Of a DNA stretch of 34,224 bases, positions 2,681 through 19,208 are shown one piece after another. Within the stretch, counting starts at the first letter, position 1, and every line of letters begins with the position of its first letter. Below the pieces are notes generated by a model. That model searched no databases, was not told where the DNA came from, and saw only the letters and a program-made list of their open reading frames with translations. Location: positions 1 through 34,224 of the forward strand of contig QHXS01000048.1 of the NCBI GenBank assembly GCA_003223975.1, in the 5' to 3' direction. This DNA comes from Acidobacteriota bacterium (GTDB lineage Bacteria; Acidobacteriota; Blastocatellia; Pyrinomonadales; Pyrinomonadaceae). Made by a program: the position numbers and the translations under genes.

Positions 2681-3052
2681 TTACCCGATCTCGATCTCGT
2701 CGAGTTCGTCGACCTCGAGTGCCTCGTCGTCGAGCAGATCTTCGAAGTCATCGACCTCGGCATCTGCGGGTGCGAGGAGCACCTTCACCTCTGCGGGCTT
2801 CGGCTTGTTGAAAGCCTCGAATCCCTTGCGGAGTTCGTCGATCTCCGAAGCGTCGATCGCCCAGCGATTGCCCTGTCCCACCCGACCCTTGATCGAGCGG
2901 AGGAACTTGCGGAAGGTGCGCCCGTCAGTCCCGAACATCGTGGCCACCGCCTTGGCGGAGAGCGTCTCCATCACCTCGGCCTCGACTTCGACCTCGTCGA
3001 GGTCGTCGATCTCGTCGTCGGGAACTTCCTGTACCTTCTTGCCCTTTGCCAT
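2681..3052 (-). CDS. Acid-flanked putative winged-helix DNA-binding protein, 123 aa
   Basis: The protein has an acidic N-terminus (residues about 9-32, mostly Asp/Glu), a compact central domain (about 33-85) and an acidic tail (about 95-123). The centre begins LSAKAVATMFGTDGRTFRKF and ends around a GQGNRW motif. This looks like a small winged-helix or HTH domain in which the RTFRK segment could be a recognition helix. I chose the ATG at 3052 because the promoter at 3102-3130 would start RNA near 3095, inside any longer reading. Its architecture, promoter and leader match those of the plus-strand gene at 18672, so the two may be paralogous regulators or nucleoid-type proteins. The acidic flanks resemble DNA mimics or SSB-like tails. 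DNA binding is inferred. Confidence 0.72.
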   Translation of the reverse strand: MAKGKKVQEVPDDEIDDLDEVEVEAEVMETLSAKAVATMFGTDGRTFRKFLRSIKGRVGQGNRWAIDASEIDELRKGFEAFNKPKPAEVKVLLAPADAEVDDFEDLLDDEALEVDELDEIEIG

Positions 3053-3101
3053 GACCCTGATTCCTTTGTTCGTGGGGGGTTTCCCCTGATTTGATATGAT
3101 C

Positions 3102-3130
3102 ATCATATAAGATCTCGTCAACCCTGTCAA
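3102..3130 (-). promoter_or_regulatory. Sigma70-type promoter of the acid-flanked gene, with palindrome and leader hairpin
   Basis: TTGACA (3125-3130), a 17-base spacer and TATGAT (3102-3107) are near-consensus boxes read leftward. The perfect palindrome ATATGAT-c-ATCATAT (3094-3108) overlaps the -10 box and could be an operator. The leader contains GGGG-aaa-CCCC (3076-3086), then AAAGGA before the ATG at 3052. The same boxes, spacing and leader plan occur at 18595-18650 on the plus strand. Confidence 0.85.
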
Positions 3131-3495
3131 CCACTACTTGTCCCCGCGGACCATCGGGGCCATCGCTCGAGGCGTCGATCACGCGCAACTCGTAGGTCCA
3201 GAGTAGCGTTGTTATACTGGCGCTTCTTAACTATACCTAAGTAGGGCCAGATCTTGGGCATAAGATTTCTTAACTGAGCGGCAGAGATAGACCACATATA
3301 CTTATTACCCGAGATATACGGACCGTTGACATGACCGCACTCAGCAATACGGGCTATCTTGTCAAGGACTTCTCGATGTTTCTGACCAACAGTAAGACGA
3401 ATTGAACCTACTCCTCGTCCCCCCTTAGCCCACCGGAAACAACCTTCTCCATCTATGAATCCGGCAAGCCATGCGTAATCAGTTTCGGATGGCAT
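3127..3495 (-). CDS. LAGLIDADG-type homing endonuclease, 122 aa
   Basis: The N-terminus carries the signature LAGFIDGEGCF (about residues 10-20), one copy only. Single-motif LAGLIDADG proteins normally act as homodimers that cut long asymmetric sites, and the length fits. It is free-standing: the DUF1643 gene upstream looks complete and overlaps its start by 17 bases, and no intron or intein boundary is seen. The last codons run into the -35 box of the next gene's promoter, suggesting insertion between two transcription units. The C-terminal 25 residues (RVARDRRLERWPRW region) are basic and less typical of the family. It may be a selfish element or act in competition between related phages. 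Confidence 0.8.
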   Translation of the reverse strand: MPSETDYAWLAGFIDGEGCFRWAKGGRGVGSIRLTVGQKHREVLDKIARIAECGHVNGPYISGNKYMWSISAAQLRNLMPKIWPYLGIVKKRQYNNATLDLRVARDRRLERWPRWSAGTSSG

Positions 3496-6114: not shown

Positions 6115-6146
6115 TTGATTAATTCTATTGTATCAGAACTAATCAA
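6115..6146. promoter_or_regulatory. Operator-like inverted repeat over the -10 box
   Basis: Arms of 12 bases (6115-6126 and 6135-6146, one mismatch) of the form TTGATTARTTCT flank the 8-base centre 6127-6134 that holds the TACAAT -10 box. A dimeric repressor bound here would cover the promoter core. The arm spacing (20 bp centre to centre) fits two turns of the helix. Confidence 0.65.
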
Positions 6147-6155
6147 CCAAGTCAA
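6127..6155 (-). promoter_or_regulatory. Sigma70-type promoter upstream of the poly-Asp-tail gene
   Basis: TTGACT (6150-6155), a 17-base spacer and TACAAT (6127-6132) read leftward. The promoter begins right after the stop codon of the gene at 6160 and would start RNA near 6120, about 24 bases before the ATG at 6096. GAAGGGAAG just before the ATG is the ribosome binding site. Confidence 0.85.
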
Positions 6156-9848: not shown

Positions 9849-10057
9849 ATCACTTCCCGATTAGGGCGAGCAAATCCATGTTGATTCTTAGTTCCTCGAA
9901 TCTCTCGATGAATCCTCGCTGCTATCTCGTAAGGATGTTCGTGTGGACGGTCGATGAATCTCTCAGCCATTCTAGCGGTGTCCTTACCAAACTCTTTCCT
10001 CAACCAGTCGAGCATCTCCTCTCGAGATTCATCTTTGTGTTCAGAACGAGAAGTCAT
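9845..10057 (-). CDS. Hypothetical helical protein, 70 aa
   Basis: A charged, mostly helical product starting MTSRSEHKDESREEMLDWLR and ending with a basic segment. The ATG at 10057 overlaps the end of the polymerase gene by 17 bases, and the stop overlaps the start of the nuclease gene (ATGA). Both overlaps argue that it is translated. There are no cysteine pairs, membrane segments or catalytic motifs. A polymerase or nuclease accessory role is a positional guess only. Confidence 0.65.
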   Translation of the reverse strand: MTSRSEHKDESREEMLDWLRKEFGKDTARMAERFIDRPHEHPYEIAARIHREIRGTKNQHGFARPNREVI

Positions 10058-12521
10058 ATACTTCCTCCGGCTTTAGTTCTCGAGCGTCTCCCCAATGGGT
10101 TCCAATCTTGAGGTCTGAGATGATAGGGACATCAAGATCAACACCGAACCACTTCTTGAGCGGGAGGTTTTCCATGGTATCCTTGATGATTGGAAGAGCC
10201 AGTGGAACATGGTCGTTGTGGATTTCGAAGTTGAGTGCATCATGTACTAGTCCTAAGCATGTCCCCTTAATCCCCTGCTCTTTAAACTGACGGTTGACCA
10301 GGATCATTGAGATGAGATTCATATCCGAGGCGAAAGATTGCACAGGTGAGTTGATTGCTTGGCGTTCAGCTTCAGCCATGACCCCTTGATCACTGCTATA
10401 GATATCAGGGAGATGCCTCACACGTCCTATGGGCGACTGGACTCGACCGTATTGCTGTACTATTCGTCGCTGACGGTTGTGCCATCCGTAAAGCCCTCGG
10501 AATCTTTCAAAAAACGAACGTCGGATATCAGTCGCCTCTCCGATGGAGAAGACGAGCTCGTACTTCTCGAAGGCCGTAGTGACGAATTTCTTAGCTCCCA
10601 TACCGTAGACGAATCCGAAGTTAACTGCCTTAGCTTTCTTACGGTCTTCCTTTGTAACTTTAGACATCGGTATGCCAAGTACCCATGATGCAGTAGCAGT
10701 ATGTATATCTTCATTCCTCTGGTAGATGCCCAGCATCGTTTTGTCTCGGCTGAGAAAAGCGACCACTCGTAGTTCAACCTGCGAGAAATCAGCCTCGACA
10801 AAGGTGAAACCAGGAGGGGCGCCAAAGAGTCCGCGGATGAAAGGGTCCCGTGGGACCTGCTGAAGATTGACTCCTCTAAGGTTCGTCTTTCCTCCAGTGA
10901 TCTTCTCAGCATCCTCCTTACCAGAGGAGAGACGTCCCGTGACAGTCCCGAAGAGTTTAAAGGTGGTATGTATGCGGTCATTCTCATCCCTCAATGCGTC
11001 GTATCTGGTTACGTATGTAGAGCAATACTTCTGCCACTTCGCTCGTTCCATGAGCAGAGTGATTACTTCGTAGTTCTTGTGATTCTTCTGCGAGACCTTG
11101 AGATCCATCATCACTGCTTCTCTTACACTCGGATCACCCAAGCTACCGTCAGACTTTTCTTTTCCTCTCTCAGTAATTGGAAAACCCAGATAGCCGAAAA
11201 GCCACCATCGCAGGAAGTTAGAAGCATTGAAATTAACCTCCACTGGTTTTCCTTTTGAACTGGATGGCCAACCCATACTTCCGGCTTCTGGGACATGTTT
11301 CATCAACTCCTGGTCTATCGCATCCCGCATGTCGAATGAGATCTTGATGGCATTGTCGAGGCGTTCCCGATCAATCCAGATCCCATACATCTCAGTCCCG
11401 ATGAGATCTTCGTTGGCTGGCATGATCATCAACTTGAACAACCGCAGCAACCTTGGTTGCTCGATCAGTTGTTGACGAAAGATCTTATAGAGATGGTAAG
11501 TATAGTAAGTGTCCAAAGCGTTATACCGCAGTACAATACGTAGCGGTGTATTGAGCAGGTTCTTAGTTTTGATCGCCCACCCTGGTACACCAAGAAGGAT
11601 GCGAGCCAATGGCTTAAGTCCTTTAACGCGGTTTTCGTCCAGAAGGTGAGCCGCCAAGAGAGTGTCAAAAGTGACGCCAATATTAACACCGAAGCGCCTA
11701 AGCCACTTAGCATCGTACTTCCCATTGTGTGCGATCTGCTTCTTTATCTCGCAGAGATCTATGGATAGATACTTCAGAACTTTCTCCCAGGAATTTCGCC
11801 AGGGCGATTCAGGGTGGTACAGGGGCAGGGCCCATACTTTCTCCACACCGTCATGGGTTATGCATGTGCCTGCCAGAGAGACGATAGCTGCTCCATCACT
11901 AAACTCGGTATCTCCGGTAGTCTCAATATCATAGGAGATGGTATGGCAACGACGAAGTAACTTTCGCAGCGACCTGAGTTGGGGTTTAGTGTAAACAACA
12001 GAGATCTTTGGGATGTGAACAGCGTCGGGTCGCCCAAGAACCTGAGATACGAAGAACTGGATATCAGCTTGCCATCCTGACTTCTGGCCTGGGTTACGGT
12101 TAACTGAACCAGGGGCCACCGTAGCGACCACGTTATGTGTTTGTTGGGCCAGTACCTGACCTCGGTAATTCGTGATACCCGAATGACCTGTGAGCGCATA
12201 GAGCGCCTCGTTTCCAAAAGCCAGGATCCACTTCGGTTTGATCTTAGCTATCTCTTCCTCGAGATATGGGCGGCATGCCTTGACCTGAGGATTCTTGATA
12301 TCCTGGTCGAACGTGCGGCACTTAGCGGCAGCGGTGAAGTACACCCTCCCTAAGTCCAACCCTGCGTTGACCAGCTCATCCTCGATCATCGACTGATAGT
12401 TCCCTGAGTTGGGCATCCTCGACACCACCATGATGTCCGCGCCCTTCGGCCCAAAGCCCCACTGACACACGACATCAGTGGTCTGATGCAGCTTGCACAA
12501 TGTGCAGTCAGGGTTTCGCAT
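10041..12521 (-). CDS. Family A DNA polymerase with N-terminal UDG-like Fe-S domain, 826 aa
   Basis: Three parts. Residues 1-165 resemble family 4/5 uracil-DNA glycosylases, with four cysteines at cluster positions (C6, C9, C68, C83), but the usual Gly-x-x-Pro-Gly loop reads VSRMPNS and the HPS motif reads VAPGS, so glycosylase activity is doubtful. Residues about 190-350 are a 3'-5' exonuclease: DIET (198-201), NGKYD (266-270), and YNALDTYYT. The rest is a Pol I-type polymerase: DFSQVELR (motif A, D578), KAKAVNFGFVYG (motif B) and VHDAL (motif C, with Ala where Glu is usual). Phe sits at the Pol I 762 position. I chose ATG 12521 (GAGG upstream, Cys pair close behind) over GTG 12602. Confidence 0.92.
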   Translation of the reverse strand: MRNPDCTLCKLHQTTDVVCQWGFGPKGADIMVVSRMPNSGNYQSMIEDELVNAGLDLGRVYFTAAAKCRTFDQDIKNPQVKACRPYLEEEIAKIKPKWILAFGNEALYALTGHSGITNYRGQVLAQQTHNVVATVAPGSVNRNPGQKSGWQADIQFFVSQVLGRPDAVHIPKISVVYTKPQLRSLRKLLRRCHTISYDIETTGDTEFSDGAAIVSLAGTCITHDGVEKVWALPLYHPESPWRNSWEKVLKYLSIDLCEIKKQIAHNGKYDAKWLRRFGVNIGVTFDTLLAAHLLDENRVKGLKPLARILLGVPGWAIKTKNLLNTPLRIVLRYNALDTYYTYHLYKIFRQQLIEQPRLLRLFKLMIMPANEDLIGTEMYGIWIDRERLDNAIKISFDMRDAIDQELMKHVPEAGSMGWPSSSKGKPVEVNFNASNFLRWWLFGYLGFPITERGKEKSDGSLGDPSVREAVMMDLKVSQKNHKNYEVITLLMERAKWQKYCSTYVTRYDALRDENDRIHTTFKLFGTVTGRLSSGKEDAEKITGGKTNLRGVNLQQVPRDPFIRGLFGAPPGFTFVEADFSQVELRVVAFLSRDKTMLGIYQRNEDIHTATASWVLGIPMSKVTKEDRKKAKAVNFGFVYGMGAKKFVTTAFEKYELVFSIGEATDIRRSFFERFRGLYGWHNRQRRIVQQYGRVQSPIGRVRHLPDIYSSDQGVMAEAERQAINSPVQSFASDMNLISMILVNRQFKEQGIKGTCLGLVHDALNFEIHNDHVPLALPIIKDTMENLPLKKWFGVDLDVPIISDLKIGTHWGDARELKPEEVYDFSF

Positions 12522-12726
12522 TCCATGCCTCGTACAGTCGTCGTAGTTTGCAGACCCGCTCGAACTCAGAAGACCATCCGTAGGCAGTCCTGGGCAATTC
12601 ACTGTAGACCCCTTGAGCAGCTAATCCACAAGCCTCTAGCTGAGTCTTCAGCTTCTCCACGTCGCCCAGCGCATTGCTCAGGTCTTGGCGCATCTTCTCG
12701 TACTCTGCGTCATCCACTTCGATCAT
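12508..12726 (-). CDS. Hypothetical coiled-coil protein, 72 aa
   Basis: The product (MIEVDDAEYEKMRQDLSNAL onward) is heptad-like over the first 35 residues and ends with a basic/aromatic segment. The ATG at 12726 has AGGG at good spacing; a GTG at 12732 in a GTGA overlap with the dCMP deaminase stop is an alternative. Its end overlaps the polymerase start by 14 bases. No known family. The link between the nucleotide cluster and polymerase suggests an accessory role, without direct support. Confidence 0.6.
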   Translation of the reverse strand: MIEVDDAEYEKMRQDLSNALGDVEKLKTQLEACGLAAQGVYSELPRTAYGWSSEFERVCKLRRLYEAWNAKP

Positions 12727-16436: not shown

Positions 16437-17933
16437 CTATTTGAACCCTCGAAGCAAGATCTCAGGTGATGCCATGATCTCCTTGACTGCCATGTCGTCA
16501 CCCTGGAGGACTTCATACTGCGTCTCATCGTAGGTGCCTGTGCAGTGCAGATAGACGAAGCGGTTGGCCTTGCCTGAGAGGGCGATGCGATCCTTGGCCT
16601 GAGTGTAGTCGACGTAGGAACTTGTCAATGAATACCAGATCATAGTCGAGGCAGTCCGCAAGTCAATACCCAACGCACCGGCTTGTGGATTCATAATCAT
16701 GACGGCAGGTCCGGATCTATTGCGGAAGGTCTCGATGTTTTTGGTGCGATCTCGTCGCTTTTGACCACCGTAGATAAGCTGAGGCACGACCTTATGCTCT
16801 CTCGCAAGTTTGCTAATGCTTGCAAGGTCTGCGCGGAATCGGGCACAGACAACGAGCTTTTCTTCTTGTTCGAACCAGTCTTCGAAGAGGTCATCGAGTA
16901 TCCTTAGTTTCTCTTGTCCGATGCGAACTAACCGACCCTTGGGATATTTCTCGCTCGGGGCAGTTCGTGCAATGCCGGAGGTGATCTGGCAGAGGCGCAA
17001 GTTCAGCACGAGTTTAATACTTGCCTCGGTGATCTCGCCCGTCTTGATCTTGGCGATCATCTCCTCAGCCATGTCGATGTAAACTTTGCGAGATTCCTCG
17101 AGAGGAACGTGGATAATTTGCGGTGGGAAGTTTGCAGGAAGGTCGAAGCATTCGTCCCTCGTCACGGCAAACGAATCTGCGTGCACGAGGCGGTGAAGTG
17201 TCTTCTGATTTCTCTCACCTAACCACTGCGGATATCCATTCTTATCAATCCACACCCCATACTTCTTCTTGAAGCTGAGCGAGGTGTGCTCTGCTATCAG
17301 GGGTGAGTCTGGCTTCATGAACTTCCACTGAGAGTACAGATCGAATACCCTCTTCTTCTTCGTGACTGCCGTGCCCGTTGATAGGATTTTGTACTCAGCC
17401 ACCTTGCCCAGTCGTTGCACGGCCATTGTCTTCTTAGCGCTGGGACTTTTGATACGATGCGACTCATCCAGAATGATCAGGTTAGGTTGCCAGGCCTTCA
17501 GCTTCCTGACCACGTCAAACCGACCACCGTTTTTCTTGGATCGTTTGGGGCTTCCGTCGGGAAGTTTCCCGATAATCTCACCAGGAGTGGAGAAGGCGTC
17601 ATAGTTGATGATAACAAAGTCCAGATACTCTGTTCCATATCGAGGTAAGGCAACGGCCTTCCTTCCTTCTTTGTCCCAAATAGTTATACGGTACTTGGCT
17701 GGGCAGTGCATCTTGATCTCATCTATCCAGACGTCGATCACCGACACTGGACATACAACGAGTACCCTCGAGAGTTTGTCAGCTTGGTATAGAATCGAGG
17801 CGAAGTCGATGCAGACCTTGGTCTTACCCGTTCTCGGATCCATCAGGAGAGCGCCACCAAACTGTAATTTCAGCAACCTCCTGAGTGCAGCAACTTGATG
17901 CTTGTACGGCTTGGTCTTAAATTTGTAGATCAT
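16437..17933 (-). CDS. SNF2/SF2-type helicase, 498 aa
   Basis: A superfamily 2 ATPase. A YKHQ Q-like motif (10-13) precedes a Walker A variant MDPRTGKTK (about 31-39), then LVVCPVSVI (Ia), LIILDESHRI (motif II, DESH, about 150) and LSTGTAV (motif III). The C-terminal lobe holds LVVCARFRADL (IV), NPQAGALGIDL (V) and QAKDRIALSGK (VI). The set is typical of short phage SNF2-like proteins that probably remodel or branch-migrate DNA in replication and repair. I use the ATG at 17933, which sits in an ATGA overlap with the small membrane gene, rather than a longer reading to 18050 that would overlap that whole gene and begin with an unrelated Cys-rich stretch. Confidence 0.88.
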   Translation of the reverse strand: MIYKFKTKPYKHQVAALRRLLKLQFGGALLMDPRTGKTKVCIDFASILYQADKLSRVLVVCPVSVIDVWIDEIKMHCPAKYRITIWDKEGRKAVALPRYGTEYLDFVIINYDAFSTPGEIIGKLPDGSPKRSKKNGGRFDVVRKLKAWQPNLIILDESHRIKSPSAKKTMAVQRLGKVAEYKILSTGTAVTKKKRVFDLYSQWKFMKPDSPLIAEHTSLSFKKKYGVWIDKNGYPQWLGERNQKTLHRLVHADSFAVTRDECFDLPANFPPQIIHVPLEESRKVYIDMAEEMIAKIKTGEITEASIKLVLNLRLCQITSGIARTAPSEKYPKGRLVRIGQEKLRILDDLFEDWFEQEEKLVVCARFRADLASISKLAREHKVVPQLIYGGQKRRDRTKNIETFRNRSGPAVMIMNPQAGALGIDLRTASTMIWYSLTSSYVDYTQAKDRIALSGKANRFVYLHCTGTYDETQYEVLQGDDMAVKEIMASPEILLRGFK

Positions 17934-18594: not shown

Positions 18595-18623
18595 TTGACA
18601 ACTGATCGACGACGATATATGAT
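18595..18623 (+). promoter_or_regulatory. Rightward promoter TTGACA-N17-TATGAT
   Basis: Consensus TTGACA (18595-18600), 17 bases, TATGAT (18618-18623). The leader contains the hairpin CGGGG-gca-CCCCG (18638-18650), then AAAGGGAAG before the ATG at 18672. It faces away from the leftward promoter at 18520-18548; the two start points are about 115 bases apart. Confidence 0.88.
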
Positions 18624-18671
18624 GACATCGTAAATCACGGGGGCACCCCGCAAACTCAAAGGGAAGTATTG

Positions 18672-19208
18672 ATGGCACCAAAGACGAAGTCAAGGCCCAA
18701 GGCTGCACCGGTAGTCGACGAAGTGGACGAACTCGACGACGATGTGGAACTCGAGGAACTTGGGGAAGAGATCGACGACACCCCCAAGAAGAAGGCAAAG
18801 CGAGCTGACTCCCCGGATTTCGGGATTCAGGAACTCTGCGCCTTCCTCGAGCGCCAGACCGGCAAGGGCTACAAGCCGCGTGAAGTTCGCACCCTCATCC
18901 GCAAGATGGCACGAGACGGATCGGGTCGCGTCGAACGCGAGATCGTCCCAGGCAATCGGGCACGCTACTCATGGACGGGCACCAAGGATCCTCAGGTTCA
19001 GGCGATCCTGGCTGCCGTCAAGGAGGGCGAGATCGAGTCCAGCCGCAAGGAGGCACTCGACAAGCTGAAGGTCCAAAGCAATGCCAAGAAGGATGCGAAG
19101 AAGGCTCAGGCTGACGCCAAGAACACCGCCAAGGGCAAGACCAAGGTCGCTGAGCCAGATGACGACGATGACGACGCCGATGATCTGGAAGAACTCGACG
19201 ACGAATAG
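18672..19208 (+). CDS. Acid-flanked putative DNA-binding protein, 178 aa, only plus-strand gene
   Basis: Domain order: basic N-terminus, acidic run (about 15-37, mostly Asp/Glu), a KKKAKR patch, a folded domain (about 48-125) starting SPDFGIQELCAFLERQTGKG with REVRTLIRKM and PGNRARYSW, a Lys/Ala-rich helix (about 133-160) and a final poly-Asp tail. The middle looks like a small winged-helix domain, with the RTLIRK helix followed by a GNR motif as in the 123-aa protein at 2681-3052. ATG 18672 is preferred to the TTG just before it because AAAGGGAAG precedes it. Promoter and leader also match the other gene. It may regulate the early/late switch or coat phage DNA; both are inference. Confidence 0.8.
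   Translation: MAPKTKSRPKAAPVVDEVDELDDDVELEELGEEIDDTPKKKAKRADSPDFGIQELCAFLERQTGKGYKPREVRTLIRKMARDGSGRVEREIVPGNRARYSWTGTKDPQVQAILAAVKEGEIESSRKEALDKLKVQSNAKKDAKKAQADAKNTAKGKTKVAEPDDDDDDADDLEELDDE

What the first reader, a model, noticed from the sequence alone, without database searches (positions are those of the whole stretch)
2681..3130. Duplicated control cassette: same promoter, leader and protein plan at two distant loci
Seen: 3052-3130 (minus) and 18595-18672 (plus) share TTGACA-N17-TATGAT, a leader containing AAATCA, a GGGG...CCCC mini-hairpin, an AAC..AAAGG stretch and a start codon about 50 bases after the -10 box. Both genes encode acid-flanked proteins with an RT(F/L).RK helix and a GNR motif. 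The second locus is on the other strand about 15.5 kb away. Inference: an ancient duplication of an autonomous regulatory unit, perhaps co-regulated by one factor binding promoter or leader.
Basis: partly seen in the sequence, partly recalled or inferred. Interest (0 to 1): 0.7.

Follow-up and report, generated by a model that had tools for sequence, protein, structure and literature searches.

The report
Phage regulator genes with hairpin leaders
Two distant genes of a soil bacterial virus encode related small DNA-binding proteins, and each messenger RNA starts with a small hairpin whose letters change between related viruses while its two arms stay matched, so the look-alike control regions are real but belong to a larger set rather than to one duplicated pair.

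Summary
Both loci have TTGACA-N17-TATGAT, a leader with a mini-hairpin, a ribosome-site-like stretch and an ATG 48-50 nt after the -10 box, and both encode acid-flanked small DNA-binding proteins. The leaders align better than shuffles (P about 0.003).

The "two-copy cassette, one factor" reading is only partly right. (1) The 3130 promoter belongs to a dispersed set of about ten promoters on a 60.9-kb phage contig, with an extended -10 and TATCAAATCA or ATGATCAA at the predicted start site. The composite element occurs four times at 0-1 mismatch, all on this contig of a 3.66-Mb assembly. (2) Each gene belongs to an old family found in dozens of relatives. In both families the leader keeps a hairpin whose arms change sequence but stay complementary; other promoters of these phages show this weakly or not at all. 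(3) The two protein families are remotely homologous. (4) Across 23 phages the two leaders of one phage are no more alike than leaders of different phages, so a common sequence-specific factor is not supported.

Best mechanism: independent, strongly expressed regulator or architectural genes with protective 5' hairpins. This is inferred; no RNA was measured.

The parts
2681..3052 (-). P1 gene, 123 aa, acid-flanked MerR/RacA-like winged helix-turn-helix protein
   Evidence: HTH_17 below Pfam cut-off, phrog_21603; AlphaFold2 core pLDDT about 90; structure matches RacA, MerR, BldC, Xis
3102..3130 (-). P1 promoter, -35 TTGACA 3130-3125, -10 TATGAT 3107-3102
3087..3096 (-). start-site element TATCAAATCA shared with dispersed promoters
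   Evidence: composite element 4 times at 0-1 mismatch, all on this contig
3076..3086 (-). P1 leader hairpin GGGG(AAA)CCCC
18595..18623 (+). P2 promoter, -35 TTGACA 18595-18600, -10 TATGAT 18618-18623
18638..18650 (+). P2 leader hairpin CGGGG(GCA)CCCCG
18672..19208 (+). P2 gene, 178 aa, acid-flanked protein with a helical, probably winged-helix core and a long C-terminal helix
   Evidence: phrog_16498; divergent from the replication operon in C196, Shrew and Triscuit; profile link to P1
18520..18548 (-). promoter divergent to P2, driving the replication operon, variant of the dispersed set (TTGATC-N17-TATAAT, then ATCATCAATCAAGG)
6127..6155 (-). another member of the dispersed promoter set (TTGACT-N17-TACAAT, then AATCAATCAAATGAAGG)

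Best explanation
P1 and P2 belong to an old class of small acid-flanked winged-helix DNA-binding genes of soil actinophages. Each is an independent transcription unit with a strong sigma-70-type promoter and a short leader holding a hairpin close to the predicted 5' end, then a ribosome-binding site and ATG. Shown here: the promoter pattern, the conserved place of the hairpin, and complementarity of its arms kept while their sequence changes. Inferred: the hairpin acts as RNA, as a structural 5' cap that slows 5'-end-dependent decay and keeps the ribosome site free, so that these regulator or architectural proteins are made early and in quantity. The likeness of the two leaders in this phage comes from this common plan and the phage-wide promoter style, not from a private duplication read by one factor.
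For: Best-stem scores exceed shuffles by z 12.6 (P1, n=32) and 7.8 (P2, n=33) against 2.1 for 48 other promoters. Joining halves of different leaders lowers pairing from 15.05 to 8.5 (P1) and 12.79 to 8.97 (P2), near the shuffled level. 26 distinct 5' arms in 28 P1 leaders. The same helix motif GTEAKTLRQFFR goes with different arms. Dispersed promoter set. P1-P2 profile homology.
Against: No RNA or start site was measured. RNAalifold on plain alignments found no consensus. The wobble-pair test for RNA was too small. Some other genes also have hairpins (G002 30008, G003 38773) and a few P1 leaders lack one (L070, L153). Expression level and timing are not known.
Confidence: 0.5

Rival explanations
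1. The inverted repeat is a double-stranded DNA operator: each winged-helix protein tunes its own gene by binding the palindrome just downstream of the start site, and operator sequences drift with protein specificity.
For: The products look like DNA-binding proteins. Two P1-like genes have 12-13-bp perfect inverted repeats flanking the -10, outside any RNA hairpin (L067, L068). A palindrome would also keep its arms matched.
Against: Stems are only 4-9 bp with 3-10-nt loops of variable length; P1 proteins with the same helix motif carry unrelated arms.
Confidence: 0.2
2. Ancient duplication of a whole promoter-leader-gene cassette, both copies still read by one regulator.
For: P1-P2 profile homology; leader alignment P about 0.003 in this phage; 8-phage test P 0.01.
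Against: The 23-phage test with composition control gives P 0.30; the promoter is shared with many other genes; P1 is multi-copy.
Confidence: 0.12
3. The hairpin is an RNA operator for translational feedback by the encoded protein, or an RNA element that alters elongation.
For: It lies between promoter and ribosome site in genes for nucleic-acid-binding proteins.
Against: Neither arm nor loop sequence is conserved, as most known RNA operators need.
Confidence: 0.1
4. Chance: two good promoters picked out by eye.
For: The hexamers are close to consensus and the pair was chosen after reading.
Against: Hairpins are kept in dozens of related leaders, and the leader alignment exceeds shuffles.
Confidence: 0.05

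Closest known systems
ESAS/SAS elements of cluster K mycobacteriophages (PMC3203893, PMC11373665)
   Same: A conserved promoter-bearing element (SigA-like -35/-10, 17-18 bp apart) dispersed before early genes of one actinophage, with a consensus that differs between phage groups.
   Different: ESAS have a 15-17-bp inverted repeat and many sit next to the 13-bp SAS; neither was seen here. Here the conserved part is an extended -10 plus ATCAAATCA or ATGATCAA.
Stoperators and operators of cluster A mycobacteriophages (PMC9283540 and own knowledge)
   Same: Many short sites dispersed over a phage genome.
   Different: Here the sites sit at promoters; no repressor is known and no integrase was found on the contig.
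5'-terminal stabilising stem-loops such as that of ompA (Emory et al. 1992, as cited in PMC2777011)
   Same: Short stem close to the mRNA 5' end, upstream of the ribosome site; shape rather than sequence matters.
   Different: No decay data here; the start site is only predicted, and the hosts are probably actinobacteria.
MerR/RacA/BldC/Xis-like winged helix proteins
   Same: P1 core fold; best structure matches RacA-DNA Z 6.2, BldC and MerR members; PHROG excisionase/regulator family matches 13 of 23 members.
   Different: Long acidic flanks, no effector domain, Pfam HTH_17 below its cut-off.

Membership tests
ESAS/SAS of cluster K mycobacteriophages | SigA-like promoter repeated before several genes | tested here: met
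ESAS/SAS of cluster K mycobacteriophages | 15-17-bp imperfect inverted repeat, 4-14 bp apart, shared by the copies | tested here: not met
   shared sites show only TTTGATA/TATCAAA with spacing that differs by 3 bp between leadered and leaderless forms, the left half being an extended -10
MerR-like winged helix proteins (P1) | winged helix-turn-helix fold | tested here: met
   AlphaFold2 core pLDDT about 90 and best matches RacA, MerR and BldC, though Z is at most 6.2
MerR-like winged helix proteins (P1) | Pfam HTH_17 match at gathering score | tested here: not met
   16.9 bits against a cut-off of 27
MerR-like winged helix proteins (P2) | winged helix-turn-helix fold | tested here: inconclusive
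   weak matches ParA2 N-domain Z 5.1 and pSK1 Par Z 4.6; profile link to P1
Stabilising 5' stem-loops | base-paired stem near the mRNA 5' end | tested here: met
   predicted from DNA, start site inferred
Stabilising 5' stem-loops | longer mRNA life because of the stem | not testable with these tools
   needs an experiment
Known RNA families (Rfam 15) | match at gathering score | tested here: not met
   no match in the window

The most novel reading that the evidence does not exclude
A shape-only leader device: actinophages mark the mRNAs of their small DNA-binding proteins with a 5' hairpin of free sequence that sets those transcripts apart (protection from decay or a change in elongation), in phages whose other promoters are partly leaderless, with the start codon at the predicted +1 inside a conserved ATGATCAA element.
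Probability: 0.3. Interest if true: 0.6.

Novelty: new variant of a known kind. Interest (0 to 1): 0.42.

Why it matters
It gives a testable gene-control rule for a large, mostly uncultured group of actinophages that has cultured members (Shrew, Triscuit, Huwbert): a dispersed promoter code with leadered and leaderless forms, and a shape-conserved hairpin placed on one class of DNA-binding genes. It also shows that an eye-caught 'duplicate' becomes a family-level pattern once relatives are read.

Tried and rejected
Dimeric operator TTTGATA-N9-TATCAAA: weakened, because the left half equals an extended -10 and the leaderless form changes the spacing by 3 bp. Self-training weight matrix per phage: drifted and over-fitted, only the top sites are trusted. 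Wobble-pair test for RNA against DNA: too few cases. Within-phage leader similarity with 8 phages (P 0.01) did not hold with 23 phages and composition control (P 0.30). Foldseek with the P2 model gave no confident match, which excludes nothing. Host origin of the promoter element: rejected, as the composite element is absent from the rest of the assembly at 0-1 mismatch. Integrases: hits lie only on other contigs. Rfam: no match.

Full report
What is there. The window is G000:C196:1-34224, part of a 60,900-bp contig in a 3.66-Mb assembly. The contig encodes a family A DNA polymerase, primase-helicase, Sak4-like protein, Cas4-like exonuclease, terminase, portal, tail and endolysin genes, so it is a tailed phage. 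The nearest cultured kin by polymerase are Streptomyces phages Zuko and KimJongPhill, Curtobacterium phage Shrew and Microbacterium phages Triscuit and Huwbert. Tyrosine and serine integrase searches hit only other contigs.

The observation. Both promoter-leader units are present as described. The 50-nt regions after the -10 align with a local score of 31 (shuffle mean 17, P about 0.003), and the 18595 leader matches no other tested promoter of the contig as well.

Not a pair. A scan of the whole contig shows further promoters of the same style at contig positions 54410-, 57622-, 52454-, 53444-, 49652+, 6155- and 18548-. They share parts of a common pattern: TGA just before the -10 (an extended -10) and TATCAAATCA or ATGATCAATCA just after it. 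Among eight promoters picked by the two hexamers alone, five have ATCAA in the next 22 nt (expected fraction 0.029, P 1e-6) and five have TGA before the -10 (P 2e-7). The composite element TGATATRATN5TATCAAATCA occurs four times at 0-1 mismatch in the whole assembly, all on this contig. Relatives have their own versions. In G004, G003 and part of C196 the element contains an ATG, mostly six nt after the -10, which predicts leaderless mRNAs.

The two gene families. P1 homologues were found in 29 loci and P2 homologues in 46 loci of IMG/VR contigs. Of 28 P2-bearing contigs, 23 also have P1, in one to four copies. P2 lies divergent from the replication-side genes in C196, Shrew and Triscuit. P1 is a MerR/RacA/BldC-like winged helix protein. 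P2 has a confidently predicted helical core followed by a long helix, with only weak matches to partition-protein domains. Profile comparison links the two cores: prob 81%, E 1.2e-5 for the single comparison, against 0.1% for the reversed control. BLASTP alone does not.

The hairpin. Leaders of both families carry a short stem that mostly starts 6-15 nt after the -10. Mean best-stem scores exceed shuffles by z 12.6 (P1, n=32) and 7.8 (P2, n=33), against 2.1 for 48 other promoters of the fully read phages. The arms differ from leader to leader (26 distinct 5' arms in 28 P1 leaders). When the 5' half of one leader is joined to the 3' half of another, pairing falls to near the shuffled level (P1 15.05 to 8.5; P2 12.79 to 8.97; other promoters 10.1 to 7.6; shuffled chimeras 7.7-7.8). 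Complementarity is therefore kept while sequence drifts. Proteins with the same helix motif GTEAKTLRQFFR have arms GCCCT/AGGGC, TCACC/GGTGA, GCCCCG/TGGGGC and TGCTTCG/CGGGGCA, which argues against a sequence-specific site for that helix. Limits: promoters and starts were called automatically and poor calls were left out by hand before the tests; the shuffles are mononucleotide (one search used dinucleotide shuffles on smaller sets, with the same direction); the sequences are related, so z values are not strict probabilities. Hairpins are not exclusive to these genes.

One factor for both? With eight phages the P1 and P2 leaders of one phage looked more alike than expected (P 0.01). With 23 phages and composition-normalised scores they do not (P 0.30).

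Mechanism. Best supported: independent strong units with structural 5' hairpins. The inferred role is mRNA protection, as for the 5'-terminal stem-loop work cited in PMC2777011. The main rival is a DNA palindrome for autoregulation, favoured by P1-like genes whose inverted repeats flank the -10 (L067 13 bp, L068 12 bp). Nothing here measures RNA, start sites or binding.

Known relatives. The dispersed promoter set resembles the ESAS promoters of cluster K mycobacteriophages (PMC3203893, PMC11373665) in arrangement, but the shared inverted repeat that defines those was not met here, so it works like them without being one of them.

Noticed in passing
G004 (IMGVR_UViG_3300021427_000036) 18755+, 20343+, 32828-, 18646-, 17215-; C196 contig 52454-, 53444-: Predicted leaderless genes with ATG six nt after the -10, often ATGATCAA or ATGATGAA; the one at 17215 begins MEPDTELPWLLDLFCGAGG, like a C5 DNA methyltransferase.
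   Followed up: partly
G004 20244-; G003 (IMGVR_UViG_3300008255_000015) 35306-, 30717-: Short predicted leaderless ORFs (e.g. MINDDTSYRKGGKPS*) just before a main gene; at G004 20244 the stop TGA overlaps the ATG of a P1 paralogue.
   Followed up: partly
L067, L068 (P1-like genes with a longer C-terminal part): Perfect 12-13-bp inverted repeats flank the -10 box of their own promoters, which looks like a DNA operator.
   Followed up: partly
window 10041-12602 (-): Family A DNA polymerase with an N-terminal uracil-DNA glycosylase-like domain (PF03167) and a 3'-5' exonuclease domain.
   Followed up: no
window 3127-3495 (-): LAGLIDADG-type homing endonuclease-like gene that ends in the -35 box of the P1 promoter.
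   Followed up: no
G000:C196 and IMGVR_UViG_3300006046_000006: The phage contig lies in a bacterial assembly and is nearly the same length as an IMG/VR contig with identical P1 and P2 (60,900 and 60,886 bp); that the binned bacterium is its host is not shown.
   Followed up: no
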